Positions 28,313 to 64,000 of a DNA stretch of 64,000 nt are shown here, piece by piece. The notes beneath the pieces are model-generated. The model had not been told where the DNA came from. It saw only the letters and a list, made by a program, of their open reading frames with translations, and made no database searches. The DNA comes from G963555815 sp965249615 [NCBI: bacterium] (GTDB lineage Bacteria; UBA8248; JACPRG01). The DNA is taken from positions 558,001-622,000 of the forward strand of contig CBDFMI010000005.1 in NCBI GenBank assembly GCA_965249615.1, in the 5' to 3' direction. The position numbers were made by a program, and so were the translations under genes. The first letter of the stretch is position 1; each line of letters opens with the position of its first letter.

Positions 28313-29516
28313 TTACACCGTGTCGGCCCGGTAGCCCTCATCGGCCAAGCGCTCCAGCACCTGGTCCAGATGGTCCCAGCCCCTGACCTCTACGTGGAGC
28401 TCGACCCGGGTCCGCCCCACCGGGAGGTCCGGGTGGGTCCGGTCATGCTGAATGTGGAGGATATTAGCATGGGCGGTCCCCAACGCCTCCGCGAGTCGGC
28501 CCAGGGTGCCCGGGTGGTCTGAAAGCTCGACCCGGATTCTGGCGAAGCGGCCGGACCGGACGAGCCCCCGCTCGATGACCCGGGAGAGAAGATTGACATC
28601 TACATTTCCACCGCTCACGAGGAGGAGAACGGGGTCGTCGCCGGGGATCTTGCCGTCCAGGAGGGCCGCCAGTCCCACCGCCCCCGCCCCTTCCACCACC
28701 GTCTTCTCCCGCTCGAGGAAGGCCGGAATGGCCTGGGCAATGGTGTCTTCATCAACCGCCACGATGGCATCGACCCATTGCGTGATGAGAGCAAACGCCT
28801 GCTCCCCCACGCGGCGGATCGCGATACCGTCGGCCATGGTATCAGAGGAAGAGGTCTCGACACGCTCTCCCGACCGAAAGGAGAGGACGGGGCTCGGGGC
28901 CTCTGCGGCGCACACACCGATCACCTGCACATCCGGGCGCTCTTTTTTCAAGGCAAGAGAGACCCCCCCGATGAGCCCTCCCCCACCGACGGGGACCACA
29001 ACGCTCCCCACCTCCGGGGCCTCCTTCAGGATCTCGAGCCCGACTGTCCCCTGCCCCGCGATGACCGCTTCGTCGTCAAAGGCGTGAAGGAACACCTTCT
29101 CCTCCTCGGCCGCCAGAGAGAGGGCTCGATCGAAGGCCTCCTCATAGGTCGCTCCGGTGAGAAGGGTCTTCGCCCCCCCCCTCCCGCAGCCCCTGAAGCT
29201 TTGCCTGAGGGGTCCCCTCTGGCATAACGATGAGGGCCGACGTGTCGAAGGCCAACGCCGCCCGCGCCACCCCCCGGGCGTGCTTCCCAGCCGAGGCCGC
29301 GACGACTCCCCGAGATCGCTCGGCGGGCGAAAGGGTCGCCATCCGGTTGAAGGCCCCGCGGATCTTGAAGGACCCCGTCACCTGGCGATGTTCAGGTTTT
29401 AGGTAGACCGGGCGGCGGCAAAGGGCCGAAAGCTCGTGGGCCCTTTCAACGGGGGTCGGCCGAAGAACCTCCTTCAGGCGTTCGGCCGCCGCATAGATGT
29501 CATCGGGAGAGGTCAC
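28313..29516 (-). CDS. ilvA: Threonine ammonia-lyase (biosynthetic, ACT-containing), frameshifted as read
   Basis: PLP enzyme making 2-oxobutanoate from threonine for isoleucine. The ATG at 29516 opens M-T-S-P-D-D-I-Y, with the PLP lysine in S-F-K-I-R-G-A and the A-S-A-G-K-H-A-R-G loop. At a run of nine C (29173-29181 on the plus strand) the frame is lost after L-R-E-G; reading eight restores G-A-K-T-L-L-T-G-A-T-Y-E-E-A and the remainder, about 400 residues in all. V-P-V-G-G-G-G-L-I-G binds PLP phosphate, and the last 80 residues are an ACT-like regulatory domain. Medium-length form, so valine/isoleucine control is uncertain. First gene of the operon. Confidence 0.92.
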
Positions 29517-29675
29517 CAGTGTCCTCGCCTCTAAAAAATTAGGGCGAACAGCCTCTTCTTGAAATCTTGTGTCATTCAGTTAAGTATAATGCCACTTCTT
29601 GTCCCGCTTGAGTAGACGGACAGGGGGGGAGTTGAGGCGGGGTTGCCTGATGGGCGCCCTGGGAGATGGGGGGCC

Positions 29676-37944: not shown

Positions 37945-39130
37945 TCAGCGCTGGGTCACGAGGTATTCCGCCGCCCGAAGGGCTGCCTTGGCCCCCTCCC
38001 CTGCGGCCACGAGGACCTGTTTGTCCCTCACGTTGGTCACGTCGCCTGCGGCGAAGACCCCCGGGACGCCTGTGTTCGTATCGCAGTCAATGAGGATCTC
38101 GCCAATTGGGTTCGTCTGGAGGACGTCCAGGGCGAAGCCCGAATTCGGCAGCAGACCTACCTCGACAAAGACCCCCCGGACCGACAAGGTCTTCCCTCCC
38201 CCGAACTTTTAGAGCGGACGCGGATCCCCTCCACCTCGTCTTTCCCCAGGATCTCAAGGGTCTCATGTCCCGTGAGCTGCTCCATGCGCTTCGTCTGCCT
38301 CAGCTTGTTCACGAGAACGTCGTCACCTGTGTAGTCCCCGAGGACGACGAGGTAAACCTTTTTGGCCATGCGGTCGAGCTCCAGGCCGCCTCGATAGCCG
38401 AGTTCCCACCCCCCACAACGGCCACATCAAGGCCTTTGTAAAAGGGGGCGTCACACGTGGCGCAAAAGGCCACCCCCTTTCCCATGAGCCGCTCCTCGCC
38501 CGGAACCCCTATACAACGCGGGCGTTTTCCCGAAGCGATGATGAGAGAACGGCCCTGATACTTATGGCCCGTCTGCGTGCAAACACGCTTTATCTTGGGG
38601 AGTGCCTCCAGACGGACGACGTTCTCCCCGATGATGCGGTCCATCTCGAACTGCTTCACGTGCTCGTCGAATTTGTCAATAAGGCTCTGCGCCTCGATGT
38701 AGTGGAAACCCAGGTAGTTTTCGAGTTCGGCTGTGATGTTCAGCTGGCCCCCCACATCCTTTCCAAGGACGAGGCATTTCAAGCCCTTTCGGCTGGCGTA
38801 AACGGCGGCCGTCATCCCGGCGGGCCCAGCCCCGATGATGATGACGTCATAGAGGGTTTTTAGGTCCACCCGCTTCGCAAGGCCCAGCTTCTCATCGAGG
38901 ACACCCGTGGCGTTGAGGGTAGCGAGCTCGTCGTAACCCCCAATGACCTCCTCATCGATGAGGATCTGGGGGGTGGTCCGCCCCCTTGTCCGCTCGATCA
39001 TAGTGTCCCAACCAGGGGTATCGCCAAGGACCTCGATCTCCTCCGCCGTCACTTCCTTCTCCTTGAGCAGCGCCCGCGCTCGATCGCACCAGGGTCAGCC
39101 AGGTTGGGAATACATGAGGACTTTTGCCAT
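37945..39130 (-). CDS. Selenocysteine-containing glutaredoxin-thioredoxin reductase fusion (two frameshifts as read)
   Basis: Starts at an ATG with AAGGAGGT five bases upstream. Codon 12 is TGA (39095-39097) within Y-S-Q-P-G-[TGA]-P-W-C, exactly the first Cys of a glutaredoxin C-P-W-C site, so Sec12/Cys15. The Grx domain runs to about residue 85, then a low-molecular-weight thioredoxin reductase with FAD loop G-A-G-P-A-G (100-105), active site C223-A-T-C226-D and G-G-G-N-S-A. One G is missing near 38384 and one T near 38192; repairing both gives about 395 residues. Expected role: NAD(P)H-driven reduction of an attached Grx module that can reduce other thiol/selenol enzymes. A SECIS-like hairpin follows the TGA. 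Confidence 0.88.
39065..39081 (-). promoter_or_regulatory. Predicted bacterial SECIS hairpin of the Grx-TrxR gene
   Basis: Thirteen bases after the TGA, GAGCGC pairs with GCTGCTC leaving one bulged T; the apical loop is GGGC and begins 20 bases after the TGA. This fits the bacterial SECIS model (small loop, G among the first two loop bases, 16-37 bases from the UGA) for SelB recognition. Confidence 0.6.
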
Positions 39131-40334: not shown

Positions 40335-41033
40335 ATGGCCGTCGAGCGAAATCACTATCAGCGAATCCCCCCGGGGCCTCTGTTTGGCTTATGGTCCTGG
40401 CGCTATCTCGACCTCCTGAAGATGATAGGCCTCAGGCTGAACCCGCGGATCCATGGCTTCTATACAAAGTTTCCCACCATTCTCCCCCCCGGCTCCAAAT
40501 TTCCAGAGGTCAACCTGGAGACGGTGGACGGAGGGAGGATCAACACAAAAACGCTTCAAGGGAAAAAGCACTTCGTCCTCGTCACCGGGGCCCTCACCTG
40601 ACCTCCGACCCGGAGGCAGTTGCCTCTCATGGAGGAGCTGGCAAAAAAATATCAGGACCGAGATGTGGAGATCTTCCTCATGTATGTCCGGGAGCCCCAT
40701 GCGAAAGAGCGGGGCTTTCGCCAGTACCGAAAACACGAGAGTTATGACCACAAGATGGGGTACGCAAGGCTCCTGGTGAAAAAGCACAGCCTCGTCATCC
40801 CCTGCCTGGTGGATAGCTTTGATGAAAAGTTGCACCAGCTTCTTGGAAACCTTCCGAACCTTGTTTATGTGGTGGATAAGAACGGGGAGATCTTCTACAA
40901 AAGCACTTGGACAGACGCGGACGCCATTGACGAGGTTCTGGCTGAGCTGGTGTCGGCGGAAGACCCGTCGCGCCCCGTCCAAAAGACGATGGACAGCCGC
41001 CGCGTGCCGGGCCGGATCCCCGTTGAGGTGTAG
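40335..41033 (+). CDS. Selenocysteine-containing deiodinase-like thioredoxin-fold protein
   Basis: A 232-residue protein whose frame contains a single TGA at 40599-40601 (codon 89) in V-T-G-A-L-T-[TGA]-P-P-T-R. This aligns with the S-C-T-U-P-x active-site loop of iodothyronine deiodinases and their bacterial redoxin relatives. After it, L-M-E-E-L-A-K-K-Y-Q-D-R-D-V-E-I-F and Y-V-R-E-P-H-A complete the deiodinase-type thioredoxin fold; H in E-P-H-A matches the conserved deiodinase E-x-H-A motif. GTGAGGGGA precedes the ATG. No signal peptide. Likely a peroxide/thiol redox enzyme, not hormone-related. The Grx-TrxR fusion 1.2 kb away is an obvious candidate reductant. Confidence 0.88.
40613..40626 (+). 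promoter_or_regulatory. Predicted bacterial SECIS hairpin of the deiodinase-like gene
   Basis: GAGGC (40613-40617) pairs with GCCTC (40622-40626) around the loop AGTT, which begins 17 bases after the TGA and has G as its second base. This fits the bacterial SECIS pattern. An alternative perfect stem CCTCCG/CGGAGG (40602-40616) directly after the TGA competes with it. Confidence 0.6.
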
Positions 41034-47524: not shown

Positions 47525-49090
47525 ATGGCCTCAAAGGTCCTCATCCTCGATTTTGGCTCTCAGTACACCCAGCTCATCGCCAGGCGGGTGCGGGAGCAAA
47601 AAGTCTACTGCGAGATCGTGCCCTGCACGGCATCTCTCGAAAAGATCCGGGCCTTTGAGCCGGGGGGCCTCATCCTTTCAGGGGGTCCCTGGAGCGTCTA
47701 TGGGTCAGACGCCCCCAAAGTCCCGAAGGCCGTGTTGGAGCTCGGAGTCCCGGTCCTTGGGATCTGCTACGGCCTCCAGTTTATGGCCCACCATCTGGGC
47801 GGAAAGGTCCGCCCACAGGCGAGACGGGAGTACGGACACGCGGGGCTCGAGATATTGGACTCCTCAGACCTCTTCCAGGGCTTTGCGGGCGAGATCCCCG
47901 TCTGGATGAGCCACGGGGACGCCATCGAGGAGTGTCCGCCCGGGTTTCAGCCCATCGGGCGGACCGAGAACTCCCCTGTGGCCGCGATGAGGAACGGGGG
48001 CCGAAAACTTTTTGGCATCCAGTTCCACCCCGAAGTGGTCCACACACCAAAAGGCCGGGAGGTGCTGAGCAATTTCCTGTTTGAGATCTGCGGCATCGCC
48101 CCTGAGTGGACCATGGCTTCCTTCGTCGAGACCTCCGTCCGGACCATCCGCGAACAGGTCGGTAAGGAGGGGGTACTGCTCGGGCTTTCAGGGGGTGTCG
48201 ATAGCGCTGTCGCCGCGGCCCTCCTCCAGCGGGCCATTGGGGATCAACTGACCTGCATCTTTGTGGACAACGGCCTCCTGCGAAAGGGGGAGGCACAGGA
48301 AGTGTTGGATTTCTTCCAAGACCATATGAAGCTTCGGCTTCGCTTTCGAGAGGCCGGCCAAGAATTTTTAGCGGCCCTTCGGGGGGTGACCGACCCCGAG
48401 GAGAAGCGACGGAGAATCGGTCGGCTCTTTATCGAGATCTTCGAATTGGAGGCCGAGGGTGCCGAGCGCGAAAGCGCAAGAAGGCCCTGCCCTGCGCCGG
48501 TCACCTACCTCTCCCAGGGGACCCTCTACCCCGACGTCATTGAGAGCGTCTCCTTCAAAGGCCCCTCGGCCACCATTAAAACTCACCACAACGTGGGGGG
48601 GCTCCCGGAGAAAATGAAGTTGAAACTCCTGGAGCCCCTTCGAGAACTCTTCAAGGATGAGGTGAGGAAGCTCGGCCAAGAGCTGGGACTCCCCAGAGAG
48701 GTCCTCATCCGTCACCCCTTCCCGGGCCCAGGGCTCGCCGTGCGCATCCTCGGGGAGGTGACGGAGGGGGCCCTCCAGATCCTCCGCGAGGCGGACGCCA
48801 TCTTCATGGAGGAGATAAAACGGGCGGGTCTCTACGAAGAGATCTGGCAGGCCTTCGCCGTTCTCCTTCCCGTCCGGACGGTCGGCGTCATGGGGGACCA
48901 GCGGACCTACGAGCACGCCGTCGCCCTCCGGGCCATCACGAGCCAAGACGGGATGACGGCCGACTGGGTGAAACTCCCCGGGGACCGCCTGGGGATCATC
49001 TCGGCCCGCATCATCAACGAGGTGAAAGGCGTGAACCGGGTCGTCTATGATATCTCCTCAAAGCCCCCCGCCACGATTGAGTGGGAATAA
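47525..49090 (+). CDS. guaA: GMP synthase (glutamine-hydrolysing)
   Basis: Aminates XMP to GMP. The 521 residues comprise a class I glutamine amidotransferase (G-G-P-W-S-V-Y, nucleophile in [12 protein letters not shown]) and the ATP-pyrophosphatase domain ([12 protein letters not shown]), ending with the dimerisation domain [26 protein letters not shown] precedes the ATG at 47525; upstream starts have no SD. Confidence 0.97.
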
Positions 49091-49115
49091 TTGTTTATTT
49101 TCAATAGGTTCAGAA

Positions 49116-49817
49116 ATGAAAATTATTTCGTATGCCGAACTAGTCATAAATGAAAATGGCAAACAGATTCAAAAGGGGATGAATTTTGGTATTCAAAAAT
49201 CGCACTCAATTGTTCTCATGTCCACTGAAAAGAATGCACCATATAATGATGAAATTTTTGATGATGGGGTAATAGAATACGAGGGACACGATGTTCCTAA
49301 AAACATAACTTCTGACAAAAAGTCGGTCGACCAACCAATGTTTAATAAATCAGGAACACCGACTGAAAATGGCAAGCTCTATGCCGCTGCAATGAACTAC
49401 AAAAAAGGAAAAAGAGAAGCGGCAAAAATCACAGTGTACAGAAGAATTAGATCTGGGGTCTGGGTAGATATGGGTTTTTACAACCTAGTTGATTCTCACA
49501 TAAAATCTCACGGCAAAAGAAAAGTGTTCAAATTTTTTCTTAAACCCACCTTTGATGATGTTGGTAAGGATGTAGATTACATTGACCTCTTGCACAACAG
49601 AGCAATTCCTGGCGATGTCCAAAGAGCAATTCCTGGCGATGTCCAAAGGGAAGTATATGAAAGAGATAAAGGAAAATGCGTAAACTGTGGTTCATCTGAA
49701 AACCTTCACTTTGACCATCTTTTGCCTTTCTCTCAAGGTGGGTCTTCTAAAACTGCTTCTAATATTCAGTTGCTTTGCGCAAAGCATAACTTACAGAAAG
49801 GAGTAAGGTTTGTTTGA
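49116..49817 (+). CDS. HNH endonuclease with N-terminal SRA/YDG-like domain, probably acquired
   Basis: A 233-residue protein. The C-terminal HNH domain has C-V-N-C, the catalytic F-D-H-L-L-P-F, N in A-S-N-I-Q-L-L-C and C-x2-H-N, a zinc-bound HNH. The N-terminal 170 residues resemble SRA/YDG base-flipping domains in their pattern (Y-E-G-H-D-V, N-G-K-L-Y-A-A-A, I-T-V-Y-R-R, W-V-D-M-G-F-Y-N-L-V-D, F-K-F-F-L-K-P), as in McrA-type modification-dependent nucleases; this part is tentative. Codon use and base composition are strongly A+T-rich against both neighbours. A direct 24-base repeat duplicates A-I-P-G-D-V-Q-R in the linker. SD is weak. Confidence 0.8.
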   Translation: MKIISYAELVINENGKQIQKGMNFGIQKSHSIVLMSTEKNAPYNDEIFDDGVIEYEGHDVPKNITSDKKSVDQPMFNKSGTPTENGKLYAAAMNYKKGKREAAKITVYRRIRSGVWVDMGFYNLVDSHIKSHGKRKVFKFFLKPTFDDVGKDVDYIDLLHNRAIPGDVQRAIPGDVQREVYERDKGKCVNCGSSENLHFDHLLPFSQGGSSKTASNIQLLCAKHNLQKGVRFV

Positions 49818-54604: not shown

Positions 54605-55432
54605 ATGACCCAGAAAATTTTTGCCCCTTCTCCGCCACCGGCGCCGGGGTCCTCAGGACGAGAGGGACCAAAGGCGGCGATCTTCGTTTTATTGACCATG
54701 GTGTTTTTCCTCATGGCTACAAACGCTGATGCGACCAGTCTTGCGACTATTGAAGGGTGGAGAGAGCTCGGGCTTCGGGGATGGATCCTCTTTCAGCGGG
54801 GCGGGATCGTCATGTACCCCATCCTCTTCTGCTCCATCCTGGGCGTGGGGGTTTCCCTGGAGCGCCTCTTCAGCCTAAGGCGGGGACGCGTCATCCGGCA
54901 GGATTTTCTGGACGATGTGCGCCACCACTGGTCCAACGGGGATGCGAAAGAGGCCCTGAAAGTCTGCCGGAGTTGCAACATTTCCATCGCCCGGGTCCTC
55001 CGGGCCGGACTTCAACGCCTCGGCCATCCCCTTGCCGACATCGAGCGGGCCATTGATTCGGCGGGCCAGCACGAAGTCTCCCTCCTCACCACCCATCTTC
55101 GGGCCCTTGGATTCCTGGCCAACGTCGCCCCCATGCTGGGCTTTCTCGGGACAGTGGCGGGGATGATCCAGGCCTTTAACGTGATCTCTCGAAGCGGGAC
55201 AGGGGACCCGGGTCTGGTGGCAGCGGGAATCTCAGAGGCCCTAATCACGTCGGCTGCCGGCCTCGTGGTGGGGATCCCGTCTCTGGCCGCCTACCATTAC
55301 TTTCGTTCCAGAGTGGACGGTTACGTCTCCGAGATGGAGGGCATCTCCCTCGACCTCCTAGAGGGTCTTGCCAAGGGGGTTTCGGAGGGGGGCGCCCCGG
55401 GGGTCAAGAGCCATGCGGTTCAATCGTCCTGA
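54605..55432 (+). CDS. MotA/TolQ/ExbB-family proton channel protein
   Basis: A 275-residue inner-membrane protein with an N-terminal signal-anchor-like segment (about residues 20-38), a second at G-I-V-M-Y-P-I-L-F-C-S-I-L-G-V-G-V (about 65-80) and two more in the conserved channel domain (A-P-M-L-G-F-L-G-T-V-A-G-M-I and S-A-A-G-L-V-V-G-I-P). Energises outer-membrane transport or Tol-Pal function with the ExbD/TolR partner directly downstream. ExbB versus TolQ cannot be decided without TonB or TolA/B neighbours. GAGGAGAGAGG precedes the ATG. Overlaps the next gene by 20 bases. Confidence 0.88.
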   Translation: MTQKIFAPSPPPAPGSSGREGPKAAIFVLLTMVFFLMATNADATSLATIEGWRELGLRGWILFQRGGIVMYPILFCSILGVGVSLERLFSLRRGRVIRQDFLDDVRHHWSNGDAKEALKVCRSCNISIARVLRAGLQRLGHPLADIERAIDSAGQHEVSLLTTHLRALGFLANVAPMLGFLGTVAGMIQAFNVISRSGTGDPGLVAAGISEALITSAAGLVVGIPSLAAYHYFRSRVDGYVSEMEGISLDLLEGLAKGVSEGGAPGVKSHAVQSS

Positions 55433-55811: not shown

Positions 55812-55897
55812 ACTCCTGCCCCGGCCAAAGGGCATAAAAATTGACCGGGCCGTCAGTCAAGCGGTCTATCGCCGGACGGAGTGGAGACGAAAGTCTG

Positions 55898-56671
55898 ATG
55901 GCCATCCCCTTTTCGACGCGTCTCTGGGTCTACACCAATTACGACTGCAACCTCTCTTGCACATACTGCTGTGCCCGCTCCCACCCCAAAGCCAAGCGGC
56001 GGGAGATCGGCCTAAAAACTTTCCGGAAATTGGTGGATGAGGCCGTCAATCTTGGGTTTGAGGAACTTTATCTGACAGGAGGAGAGCCGTTCCTTCTGCC
56101 CGAGATCTTCGACATGCTGGACCACTCTCTCCCCCGGATCCCCACGACCGTCCTCACCAACGCGACCATCTTCACGCCAAATCGGCTCGAACGCCTAAAA
56201 ACGCTGCCGACAGGACATCTCTCCCTTCAGGTGAGCATCGACAGCCCGGACGCCGCCGTGAATGATTTTTACCGCGGGGCAGGGAGCTTTGAAAAAGCCC
56301 TAAGAGGGGTCCGGGGCCTGACGGCTGCGGGCATGCGCGTCCGTATCGGGGCGACAGAGACGCCCAAAAACCAAGGACAAGGGGAGACCCTTTCTGATTT
56401 CCTCTCTGGCGAAGGGATCTCTCGGGATGACCAGGTCCTTCGGCCTCTCGCCATGCGCGGCTACTCGGAGGGCGGGAAGGAGATCACGACCCACAAGCTT
56501 CTTCCCGAGCTTTGCGTGGACCGGGATGGGGTCTACTGGCACCCCGTCTCGACGGACGGGGACTTCCGCATCTGCCAGGAGATCTTTCCCCTCTCTCGGG
56601 TGGTTGCCACTGTTGAGGCTGAACTCATTCGCAGGAAGCGGGAGGGTATCGAAAGCGTCCCCTATCAGTGA
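55898..56671 (+). CDS. Radical SAM protein of unknown specificity
   Basis: A 257-residue protein with the cluster motif C17-N-L-S-C21-T-Y-C24, L-T-G-G-E-P (SAM binding) and T-N-A-T-I-F-T further on. No SPASM-type cysteine-rich extension is evident; a single C-V-D-R-D-G and I-C-Q-E-I near the end are weak hints of a degenerate one. Compactness suggests a small-molecule or peptide activator-type enzyme. No substrate peptide gene is recognised nearby. It follows the ExbD-like gene by 86 bases. Confidence 0.85.
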   Translation: MAIPFSTRLWVYTNYDCNLSCTYCCARSHPKAKRREIGLKTFRKLVDEAVNLGFEELYLTGGEPFLLPEIFDMLDHSLPRIPTTVLTNATIFTPNRLERLKTLPTGHLSLQVSIDSPDAAVNDFYRGAGSFEKALRGVRGLTAAGMRVRIGATETPKNQGQGETLSDFLSGEGISRDDQVLRPLAMRGYSEGGKEITTHKLLPELCVDRDGVYWHPVSTDGDFRICQEIFPLSRVVATVEAELIRRKREGIESVPYQ

Positions 56672-57902: not shown

Positions 57903-58250
57903 TTAAGGCCCGAATAGTTGCTCATAAATCTTGGCGTTGAAGCCGACCGCGGTCTTCTTCCCGGCGACGACCACCGGGCGTCTAATGAAGGTGTACTCTC
58001 CGGCCATATGCCTCAGGAGGTCTCGTTCCGAAAGCTCTTTTTGGTCAAGGCCAAGCGTCCGGTACTTAAGGGCCCTGCGGGAGAAGAGGGTTTCGGCGCC
58101 GCCCACCGCCTTGGCCAGAACCTCGACCTCCTTTCGGCTAAGGGGGTTTTTTTTGATGTCTCGAAACTCCAGACCGAAATGTCCCAAACCCTTGAGAAAG
58201 GCGACCGCCTTCTGGCAGGTTCCTCAGGTGGAAGACCAGTAGATTTTCAT
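57903..58250 (-). CDS. Selenocysteine-containing ArsC/Spx-like thioredoxin-fold protein
   Basis: A 115-residue protein with TGA at codon 9 (58224-58226) in W-S-S-T-[TGA]-G-T-C-Q-K-A. This matches the catalytic C-x2-C of ArsC/Spx/YffB-type proteins, giving Sec9/Cys12. D-I-K-K-N-P-L-S, L-x-R-H-M-x-x-x-x-x-F-I-R-R-P-V-V-V and G-F are typical of the family. Without the TGA readthrough the domain would lose its whole first strand and active site. RNA-polymerase binding as in Spx is not implied. It is a likely reductase or thiol oxidoreductase. The stop is TAA at 57903-57905. Confidence 0.85.
58195..58213 (-). promoter_or_regulatory. Predicted bacterial SECIS hairpin of the ArsC-like gene
   Basis: Ten bases after the TGA, AGAAGGC pairs with GCCTTTCT, leaving one bulged T, around the apical loop GGTC. 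The loop begins 18 bases after the TGA. Loop G-G-U with a bulged U closely resembles the E. coli fdhF SECIS features bound by SelB. Confidence 0.65.
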
Positions 58251-61903: not shown

Positions 61904-62305
61904 ATGACTTATGTAGTTGTGGAGCCCTGTATCGCCACAAAGGATAGTATCTGTGCCCAGGTGTGCCCGGCCGAGTGCATCTACGAGGGGAAGGAGATGT
62001 TCTACATCGACCCCATCGATTGCATCGACTGTGACGCCTGCGTGCCGGTCTGCCCCGTCGACGCTATCTACAAGGAAGACCAGGTCCCCGAGAAGTGGAA
62101 AGACTATACCCAGAAGAACGTCGACTGGTTTGATACGGAGGAAGGGCGGGAGGCCAAGTCAACGGGCAGGATCATGGAGGGCGTCTATCGAACCCTGGGC
62201 TCAGACACGCTCCATTTGAACCGTGTTGATATGGATAAGGTGAAGGCCAAAGCCCCCATTGCCACGAAACTCAATATCGTGGCAGACGAGACGGGTGATA
62301 GATAA
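61904..62305 (+). CDS. 7Fe-8S ferredoxin (FdxA-like)
   Basis: A 133-residue low-potential electron carrier. Cysteines C9, C17, C21, C25, C40, C43, C46 and C50 occur in the C-x7-C-x3-C-P ... C-x2-C-x2-C-x3-C-P layout of 7Fe ferredoxins. The residue at position 11 (Cys in some 8Fe relatives) is A/T, as expected for a 3Fe-4S site. The 80-residue C-terminal part (E-K-W-K-D-Y, D-W-F-D-T-E-E-G) has no clusters. GAGAGGGG precedes the ATG. Its 3' end and terminator are duplicated twice just downstream. Confidence 0.92.
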   Translation: MTYVVVEPCIATKDSICAQVCPAECIYEGKEMFYIDPIDCIDCDACVPVCPVDAIYKEDQVPEKWKDYTQKNVDWFDTEEGREAKSTGRIMEGVYRTLGSDTLHLNRVDMDKVKAKAPIATKLNIVADETGDR

Positions 62306-62343
62306 GAGGCCTAGACCTCCTTCTAGCCCTTTCCGCACATCAT

Positions 62344-62382
62344 AAAAAGGGGCTGCAGGGAAAATCCTGCGGCCCCTTTTTT
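62344..62382 (+). terminator. Intrinsic terminator of the ferredoxin gene
   Basis: AAAAAGGGGC-TGCAGG pairs with CCTGCGGCCCCTTTTTT around GAAAAT: a long stem followed by T6. This is the first of three related terminators. Confidence 0.9.
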
Positions 62383-62418
62383 ATATATCCCCCTCCCCTT
62401 CCAGAAAAGAACGGCAGG

Positions 62419-62749
62419 CCCCCAAGAAGCGGAAAGACTATGCCCGGAAGAACACCGACTGATTTGATACTGAGGAAGGCTGGGGGGCCAAGGCGGCGGG
62501 CAGAATCCTGGGGGGGCAGAGAGGGCAGATATCGATCCATGGACCCAGGGGACTCGGGCCTGTCCAGGCTTCAGAACCACTCCATTTGAACCATGTTGAT
62601 ATCGAGACAGTAAGGGTTGGCACCCCCACTACCACGAAACTTGATAGCGTGGCAGACGAGACAGGGGATAAGTAGCCTAGGCCTTCTTCTAGCCCTTTCC
62701 GCACATCATAAAAAGGGGCTGCAGGGAAAATTCTGCGGCCCCTTTTTTA
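62419..62749 (+). pseudogene. Decayed copy of the ferredoxin 3' end plus terminator (copy 2)
   Basis: Nucleotide match to the ferredoxin C-terminal coding part from the K-D-Y-A-R-K-N region through the stop, the 3' untranslated stretch (C-T-T-C-T-A-G-C-C-C-T-T-T-C-C-G-C-A-C-A-T-C-A-T) and the hairpin (62710-62748). The coding frame is ruined: GACTGATTTGAT contains a stop where the intact gene has GACTGGTTTGAT, and an extra segment (GGGCAGATATCGATCCATGG) interrupts it. The cluster-binding half is absent. Confidence 0.8.
62710..62748 (+). terminator. Second copy of the ferredoxin terminator
   Basis: Almost identical to the first terminator: AAAAAGGGGCTGCAGG, loop, T-T-C-T-G-C-G-G-C-C-C-C and T6. 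One base difference weakens the inner stem slightly. Confidence 0.8.
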
Positions 62750-62788
62750 TGTGCCCCCCTCCCCTTTCATAAAAGGGGACCCAAGCCC

Positions 62789-63043
62789 CCGAGAAGCGGA
62801 AAGACTATGCCCGGAAGAACGTCGACTGGTTTGATACGGAGGAAGGGCGGGAGGCCAAGGCGACGGGCAGGATCATGGAGGGCAGAAAGGGCAGATATCG
62901 ATCCACGGGCCTAGGCCCGCCCCGGGCTTCGGACCCGCTCTACTTTAACCGTGTTGATATCGAGAAAGTGAAGGCTGGCGCCCCCATTGCCACGAAACCC
63001 AACAAAAAGAGGCCGCGGGAAAAATCCCGCGGCCTCTTTTTTT
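62789..63043 (+). pseudogene. Decayed copy of the ferredoxin 3' end plus terminator (copy 3)
   Basis: Again matches the ferredoxin C-terminal coding part (D-W-F-D-T-E-E-G-R-E-A-K conserved at DNA level) but lacks the cluster half. It shares with copy 2 the inserted GGCAGATATCGATCC segment absent from the intact gene, so copies 2 and 3 share an ancestor. Its own terminator is re-evolved or diverged (63004-63043). Short frames across it are not real genes. Confidence 0.78.
63004..63043 (+). terminator. Third terminator of the ferredoxin repeat series
   Basis: AAAAAGAGGCCGCGGGA pairs with TCCCGCGGCCTCTTTTTTT: a perfect twelve-base G:C-rich stem and T7. With A5 on the opposite side it can also end the convergent minus-strand molybdoenzyme transcript. 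Confidence 0.88.
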
Positions 63044-63080
63044 ACCCAATCCCCTTTTCAGAAGGGGAAGGTCTCAGGTG

Positions 63081-64000
63081 CTAGACCTGGTCGTAGGTCG
63101 TCACCGGCTCCTCGCACTTTGAGATTCGGGCGAGAACCACTCCCAGATACCAACTTCCGGCGGCCTGGTCACTGTGGGACGGGTCGTCAGAAGTGCACAG
63201 GTTGATGTTAGACTCCCACACCCCAAGGAGCGTAGGCTCAGCCGCTGATTTGTCCGGGAACCACCATCCGAAGGCAGGGCAGATCACCTTGGGATGAATG
63301 GCGTCCGTCACACGGGCCAGCTGCTTGCAGCGACCGTGACGAGTCTCGATCCACACAGCATCCCCATCCTCGATCCCGTGCTTCTTCGCGACCTCAGGAT
63401 GTATCTCACACAGCGGTCTCGGCTCAAGACGCCTCTGGGCATCGATGTGCCGGTGTGAGGAGTGGAGGAACGCCTTGCACTTACGGCTGATCATCACGTA
63501 GGGGTAGTCCTTCAGAAGGTCAGGTGTCCTGAAGGGGCTCTCGGCCGGCTCCATGTGGTCCGGCAGAGGGTCGTACCCCAGGTCCTTGTAGATGGTGGAG
63601 GAGAGCTCCACCTTCTTCATGTTAGTCCTGAAACGGCCGATCTGCTCATGCTCCTTGTGGGGCAGGGCCTCTGTGTCCCAGTACTTGGTACTGGAAAACT
63701 GCTCCCAGGTCATCCCCGTCGGCTTCAGCCGGTAGTCGTACACATCTTCCAAGGTCTCCCAGGGCCAGACCTCTTTCTCAGTTTGACCCAACCGGATCCC
63801 AAGCGCCCGCCAGAAGTCATAGTCGTCATAGCGGTCAAACTCCCCTTCTCTCTTCTTGGGAAGTGCGCGCTGGCCGGTGGCCAGGGTATTGGCGTGCTCC
63901 AAGAAGGAGAACTGGGGACGCTCGACCCAGTGAGTGACAGGAAGGACATAGTCCATCAGGGCACCCGTCGGGTTCATGGTCAAGTCGAGGTTCACCGCGA
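63081..64000 (-). CDS. DMSO-reductase-family molybdopterin oxidoreductase, C-terminal part
   Basis: The frame is open to the window edge (about 305 codons visible). N-P-T-G-A-L-M-D-Y-V-L-P-V-T-H-W-V-E-R is the conserved segment before the molybdopterin dinucleotide-binding domain, and the last 120 residues form that domain (I-H-P-E-V-A-K-K-H-G-I-E-D-G-D-A-V, V-T-D-A-I-H-P-K-V). It resembles the acetylene-hydratase / thiosulfate-reductase-like clade, but the 4Fe-4S and metal-ligand residues lie outside the window, so function and possible Sec at the Mo site cannot be judged. Confidence 0.85.
   Translation of the reverse strand, partial: AVNLDLTMNPTGALMDYVLPVTHWVERPQFSFLEHANTLATGQRALPKKREGEFDRYDDYDFWRALGIRLGQTEKEVWPWETLEDVYDYRLKPTGMTWEQFSSTKYWDTEALPHKEHEQIGRFRTNMKKVELSSTIYKDLGYDPLPDHMEPAESPFRTPDLLKDYPYVMISRKCKAFLHSSHRHIDAQRRLEPRPLCEIHPEVAKKHGIEDGDAVWIETRHGRCKQLARVTDAIHPKVICPAFGWWFPDKSAAEPTLLGVWESNINLCTSDDPSHSDQAAGSWYLGVVLARISKCEEPVTTYDQV

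What the first reader, a model, noticed from the sequence alone, without database searches (positions are those of the whole stretch)
39065..39130. Sec-containing glutaredoxin fused to thioredoxin reductase
Seen: an ATG with an excellent SD opens a frame whose codon 12 is TGA, in P-G-[TGA]-P-W-C, followed without a break by Grx sequence and then a complete TrxR (after two indel repairs). Known: glutaredoxin sites are C-P-[Y/W/F]-C, and Sec replaces the first Cys in some Grx selenoproteins. Inference: a single polypeptide carries its own NAD(P)H-driven reductase plus a selenol Grx module. A SECIS-like hairpin with bulged T and GGGC loop sits 20 bases from the UGA. Annotation pipelines would start the gene after the TGA and lose the active site.
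Basis: partly seen in the sequence, partly recalled or inferred. Interest (0 to 1): 0.9.

Follow-up and report, generated by a model that had tools for sequence, protein, structure and literature searches.

The report
Selenocysteine glutaredoxin fused to thioredoxin reductase
An uncultured bacterium carries a gene for a redox enzyme that joins a glutaredoxin to its own reductase and very probably places the rare amino acid selenocysteine, written as a stop codon, in the active site, where relatives use ordinary cysteine.

Summary
On the minus strand, ATG 39130 opens MAKVLMYSQPG-[UGA]-PWC..., a glutaredoxin (PF00462) running into a low-Mr thioredoxin reductase (PF07992). Two frame breaks interrupt the reductase; another gene in the window is broken too, so I read them as sequencing or assembly indels. 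All 15 Grx-TrxR fusions that I read from other genomes have Cys at the UGA position; the closest, 66% identical, has CPWC. Two more genes in the window have an in-frame UGA at a catalytic position: a deiodinase-like redoxin (40599) and an ArsC-like protein (58226). Relatives carry TGA at the same column in 2 of 2 and 5 of 6 cases. UGA is an ordinary stop in 14 of 25 genes checked. The proposed SECIS hairpin can form but is no stronger than at ordinary codons. No genome is held, so selABCD could not be checked. Best reading: a Sec variant of a Grx-TrxR fusion family, working like AhpF or NTRC as a self-reducing redoxin, perhaps in oxidative-stress defence. Sec-Grx and Cys fusions each exist; I found no printed bacterial Sec form of the fusion. 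New variant of a known kind.

The parts
37945..39130 (-). Grx-TrxR fusion gene with two frame breaks (one near 38370, one near 38200)
   Evidence: Pfam PF00462 and PF07992 over cut-off before the first break; three-frame match to L001
39135..39142 (-). Shine-Dalgarno-like AAGGAGGT before ATG 39130
   Evidence: read from sequence
39095..39097 (-). in-frame UGA, codon 12, proposed selenocysteine in U-P-W-C
   Evidence: Cys at this column in 15 of 15 fusions read
39065..39081 (-). SECIS-like hairpin, loop GGGC, bulged U on the 3' side
   Evidence: folds; G-loop hairpins as stable follow 30% of 250 control codons
40335..41033 (+). deiodinase-like redoxin with in-frame UGA at 40599-40601 (GALT-U-PPT), second selenoprotein candidate
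   Evidence: PF00837, PF08534, PF00578 over cut-off; both relatives found in 395 genomes have TGA at the same column
57903..58250 (-). ArsC-like protein with in-frame UGA at 58226-58224 (SST-U-GTC), third selenoprotein candidate
   Evidence: TIGR01617 65.9 bits and NF041106 46 bits, both below cut-off; 5 of 6 relatives found in 395 genomes have TGA at the same column, one has Cys

Best explanation
The gene encodes a glutaredoxin fused to a low-Mr thioredoxin reductase whose Grx active site is U-P-W-C, with UGA read as selenocysteine. By analogy with AhpF and NTRC, electrons pass from a pyridine nucleotide to FAD, to the CATC disulfide, to the attached Grx selenenylsulfide, and on to an outside substrate such as a peroxiredoxin-like partner or an oxidised or glutathionylated protein. 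Shown: domain order, UGA position, U/C pairing, conserved motifs, and two other UGA genes of the same kind in the window. Inferred: Sec insertion itself, the electron path, and an oxidative-stress role. The two frame breaks are taken to be sequencing or assembly indels.
For: Grx and TrxR domains in one frame across the UGA. Cys at the UGA column in 15 of 15 fusions read. Purifying-selection pattern after the UGA, dN 0.30 with dS not computable, read as saturated. Two further UGA redox genes whose relatives have TGA at the same column, 2 of 2 and 5 of 6. All 7 genomes of those TGA-bearing relatives have SelB over the cut-off (control: over the cut-off in 2 of 14 known genomes). UGA is an ordinary stop in 14 of 25 genes. 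Conserved FCATCD and GxGxxG motifs. Around the Cys fusions, 9 of 14 loci have a peroxiredoxin, rubrerythrin, ferritin or desulfoferrodoxin gene nearby.
Against: Two frame breaks in the same gene. SECIS not above background (no Rfam match for a SECIS). No Sec orthologue of the fusion found in the genomes searched. The organism's sel genes are unseen, and no tRNA lies in the window. The stress-gene neighbourhood is not seen in the window or around the closest relative (L075), and neighbours were picked by eye without a background control.
Confidence: 0.78

Rival explanations
1. The gene is a pseudogene: the UGA is a nonsense mutation and the two indels are real frameshifts.
For: Three lesions relative to L001 in one gene.
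Against: The UGA falls exactly on the catalytic Cys column, invariant in 15 of 15 fusions read. Two other genes in the window show the same pattern with TGA in relatives. Codon-position pattern of purifying selection persists after the UGA. The ilvA-like gene is also frame-broken, so indels are not special to this gene.
Confidence: 0.12
2. The TGA is a base-calling or assembly error for TGC or TGT, and the protein is an ordinary Cys Grx-TrxR fusion.
For: The record has indel-like errors; all 15 relatives read have Cys; one base change separates TGA from the TGC of L001.
Against: Three redox genes in 64 kb have TGA exactly at the catalytic position, and relatives of two of them have TGA there too. 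Errors would have to hit the same kind of codon three times.
Confidence: 0.06
3. Translation starts downstream, at GTG 39052, giving a TrxR with a truncated Grx.
For: A mechanical ORF caller starts there.
Against: The Shine-Dalgarno-like sequence sits before ATG 39130, and the segment before GTG, including PWC, aligns with the relatives.
Confidence: 0.04

Closest known systems
   Same: Same domain order and length class, CP[FW]C in 14 of 15 fusions read, CATC or CSTC in the reductase
   Different: Cys instead of Sec; intact frames in the rows read
Sec-containing glutaredoxin (PF00462, UxxC; Table 1 of PMC13188914)
   Same: Sec at the first active-site position of a Grx fold
   Different: Listed as Grx; no reductase fusion is named in that table
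Sec homologue of the AhpF N-terminal domain (TIGR02187, UxxC; Table 1 of PMC13188914)
   Same: A UxxC redoxin of the kind that serves an AhpF/TrxR-type flavoenzyme
   Different: Listed as a Grx-like domain protein; here the redoxin is a single classical Grx fused to the flavoenzyme
AhpF (NCBIfam TIGR03140)
   Same: Redoxin domain ahead of a TrxR-like flavoenzyme; best solved-structure match of L001
   Different: Score far below cut-off, one Grx domain instead of the double fold, Sec (double fold recalled)
NTRC (PMC4988983, start of abstract seen in listing)
   Same: TrxR and redoxin in one chain that serves a peroxiredoxin
   Different: Thioredoxin as an extension of the reductase; no Sec is mentioned in the text seen
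Animal thioredoxin-glutathione reductase (TGR; PMC8914392 and PMC6332120, listings with start of abstract)
   Same: Grx joined to a TrxR, a selenoprotein
   Different: High-Mr TrxR with Sec in the C-terminal tail, not in the Grx (recalled)

Membership tests
bacterial selenoprotein | in-frame UGA with conserved coding sequence on both sides | tested here: met
   Grx then TrxR after the UGA; the start of the Grx before it, only 2 of 9 residues identical to L001
bacterial selenoprotein | Cys homologues at the UGA position | tested here: met
   15 of 15 fusions read
bacterial selenoprotein | SECIS element just after the UGA | tested here: inconclusive
   G-loop hairpin present, z +1.16, no better than 30% of control codons
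bacterial selenoprotein | selA, selB, selC, selD in the genome | not testable with these tools
   no genome held for the window
bacterial selenoprotein | Sec shown in the protein | not testable with these tools
   needs 75Se labelling or MS
glutaredoxin (PF00462) | Pfam score over cut-off | tested here: met
   53.5 bits against 22.9, residues 4-63 (UGA read as Cys)
glutaredoxin (PF00462) | C/U-P-x-C active site and TxP cis-proline motif (motif labels recalled) | tested here: met
   U-P-W-C and RTTPQI read
low-Mr thioredoxin reductase | FAD/NAD domain PF07992 with the CATC redox motif | tested here: met
   88.2 bits against 26.1 before the first frame break; FCATCD
low-Mr thioredoxin reductase | NCBIfam TIGR01292 over cut-off | tested here: inconclusive
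   172.3 bits (window, 253 aa) and 252.4 bits (L001, 344 aa given) against 343.45; both queries were truncated
low-Mr thioredoxin reductase | HRRxxxR motif for NADPH (recalled) | tested here: not met
   window VYLVVLGDYTGDD in the second frame, L001 VYLLVRGDF; of the printed fusions L043 shows HR at that place
AhpF | TIGR03140 over cut-off and double-fold N-terminal domain | tested here: not met
   176.7 bits (window) and 248.4 bits (L001, 344 aa) against 502.9; a single Grx of about 80 residues

The most novel reading that the evidence does not exclude
An unlisted selenoprotein architecture: a self-reducing selenol glutaredoxin, perhaps NADH- rather than NADPH-linked, that supplies electrons to the neighbouring Sec deiodinase-like redoxin and the Sec ArsC-like protein, so that one organism runs a small chain of selenol redox enzymes.
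Probability: 0.15. Interest if true: 0.65.

Novelty: new variant of a known kind. Interest (0 to 1): 0.5.

Why it matters
If right, it adds a domain architecture that Table 1 of the 2026 census of prokaryotic selenoproteins (PMC13188914) does not list. It also gives a U/C pair inside a fusion that carries its own reductase, so what Sec gains over Cys could be measured with reductase and redoxin in one chain. The first stop-free start lies after the active site, so routine annotation would probably truncate the gene.

Tried and rejected
Genome-wide reassignment of UGA: rejected, 14 of 25 genes checked end in TGA (several names there, such as DnaE, TopA, GDH, MreB and HslU, are recalled from sequence). 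AhpF membership: rejected on score and architecture. A SECIS above background: not found. Sec orthologues of the fusion: sought in 395 genomes of the phylum of L001, 85 of its class, 23 of another class, and 179 and 180 genomes of two other phyla. No match listed had a stop inside; two searches returned nothing at E 1e-55 and had no positive control, so they show little. Viral contigs gave three loci matching the Grx part only. The AlphaFold model of L001 (12 rows) had mean pLDDT 62.2, with only the Grx well predicted (block means 80-88), so it was not used to argue about domain contacts. The taxon of the window is unresolved: best DnaE identity 55% among 11 genomes, best glutamate dehydrogenase identity 58% among 148.

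Full report
What is there. Minus strand, ATG 39130 after AAGGAGGT reads MAKVLMYSQPG-UGA-PWCDRARALL..., UGA at 39097-39095. Residues 4-63 match Pfam Glutaredoxin (53.5 bits, cut-off 22.9) and residues 94-250 match Pyr_redox_2 (88.2 bits, cut-off 26.1). With the intact 395-aa relative L001 as query, tblastn gives three segments in three frames: 64% identity over residues 4-259 (counted a little past the break), a middle segment scored at 38.5% because it starts out of frame, and 70% over residues 317-395, ending at 37951. The second break lies in a G-rich stretch. An ilvA-like gene (28316 to about 29600, minus; PALP and ACT hits) also changes frame. I read the breaks as sequencing or assembly indels; real decay is not excluded.

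U/C pairs. Of 395 genomes of the phylum of L001, 37 match at E 1e-40 or better, and 17 of these 37 matches start within the first four query residues, so they include the Grx part. Among 85 genomes of the class, 2 match at E 1e-60, one of them new. I read 15 fusions: CPFC in 13, CPWC in the closest (L025, the same gene as L001, 66%), CTKC in one. Three further matches (G224, G096, G022) were not fetched; one search reports no stop inside them. A 16-row tree joins the window to L025 with support 91/89, which is not starred; L043 and L052 sit on long branches. Codon positions 1/2/3 differ at 0.25/0.19/0.59 in the Grx after the UGA and 0.27/0.21/0.67 in the TrxR; NG86 gives dN 0.30, dS could not be computed, and YN00 failed. 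The name Desulfobacterota for this phylum is recalled; the calls name only L001 as Desulfatiglandales.

Other UGA genes in the window. A mechanical scan for UGA at Cys-like motifs with open flanks printed dozens of rows, most of them chance frames, including a chance UPWC at 54693. By eye, three rows read as redox proteins: the Grx-TrxR, a deiodinase-like redoxin (40335-41033, UGA 40599; PF00837, PF08534 and PF00578 over cut-off; NF038285 below cut-off) and an ArsC-like protein (57903-58250, UGA 58226; TIGR01617 and NF041106 below cut-off). In the 395 genomes the redoxin has 2 relatives at E 1e-12 (28-31% identity), both with TGA at the same column; the ArsC-like protein has 6 (33-37%), five with TGA at the same column and one with Cys. 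SelB exceeds its cut-off in 20 of 22 genomes asked, in all 7 with TGA-bearing relatives and in 11 of 13 with Cys fusions; one of these matches holds a stop and one is a fragment. The two without are G088 and G001; G001 has a short match at the end of a contig (191 bits, cut-off 242) and a tRNA-Sec match of 75 bits (cut-off 47). Controls over cut-off: 2 of 14 known genomes for SelB, 5 of 14 for tRNA-Sec, so the latter is the looser test. UGA is also an ordinary stop here, 14 of 25 genes. Sec use by this organism is therefore likely, though its own sel genes are unseen: no genome is held, and the window has no tRNA and no Rfam match over the gathering score.

SECIS. The 45-nt stretch folds worse than its shuffles (z +1.16; 179 of 200 fold as well or better). 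The deiodinase-like one folds well (z -2.15; 6 of 200), the ArsC-like one not (z -0.51; 58 of 200). G-loop hairpins as stable follow 30%, 8% and 25% of 250 control codons; with any loop the figures are 51%, 11% and 45%. A small loop with a guanosine fits the stated feature of bacterial SECIS elements (PMC1088965, passages), but this is weak evidence.

How it probably works. The best solved-structure matches of L001 are AhpF and low-Mr TrxR for the flavoenzyme and Grx3 for the Grx. By analogy electrons go from NAD(P)H to FAD, CATC, UPWC and substrate; none of this was tested. The HRRxxxR motif for NADPH (recalled) is absent in the window and in L001, so NADH or another donor is possible. Around 14 fusions, 9 loci have a peroxiredoxin, rubrerythrin, ferritin or desulfoferrodoxin gene within about 4 kb and 2 more have a stand-alone Grx. 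The other three are L075 (the closest relative), L083 (no neighbour scanned) and L088 (a CMD-domain protein). I scanned 20 neighbours chosen by eye, without a background control; in two loci (L078, L081) the simple ORF picker missed the fusion and I placed it. The window itself has an M28 peptidase, a glutamate dehydrogenase (name recalled) and the deiodinase-like redoxin beside the gene. The oxidative-stress role is an inference from relatives.

Known or new. Table 1 of PMC13188914 was read in full (part 3 of that section was not read). It lists Sec-Grx, a Sec homologue of the AhpF N-terminal domain, and deiodinase-like and ArsC-like selenoproteins, but no Grx-TrxR fusion. Passages found by term in PMC9312934, PMC2398784 (12 of 25 places shown), PMC1794560, PMC1088965, PMC1914089, PMC545781 and PMC10880999 (12 of 19 shown) name none. 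The listings of searches (20 of 77 shown; 12 of 14 shown) show no bacterial Sec Grx-TrxR by title or start of abstract; they do show animal Grx-TrxR selenoproteins. The library is open-access only. In NCBIfam none of the 25 best families shown for the fusion reaches its cut-off. I file it as a new variant of a known kind.

Noticed in passing
40335-41033 (+): Deiodinase-like redoxin with in-frame UGA at 40599; both relatives found have TGA at the same column.
   Followed up: yes
57903-58250 (-): ArsC-like protein with in-frame UGA at 58226; 5 of 6 relatives found have TGA at the same column.
   Followed up: yes
28316-29600 (-): Threonine-dehydratase-like gene (PALP, ACT) whose N-terminal part lies in another frame, so the record has indels beyond the TrxR.
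   Followed up: partly
62300-63090: Two similar copies of a few hundred bases each; where one reads TGG (Trp) the other reads TGA. Probably a non-coding or decayed duplicate.
   Followed up: no
49035-49814 (+): Open frame with low third-position GC (0.33) in a window of 60% GC, perhaps acquired DNA.
   Followed up: no
55838-56668 (+): Radical SAM protein closest to NCBIfam NF049973 (Rv1681 family), 291.8 bits, below its cut-off of 380.
   Followed up: no
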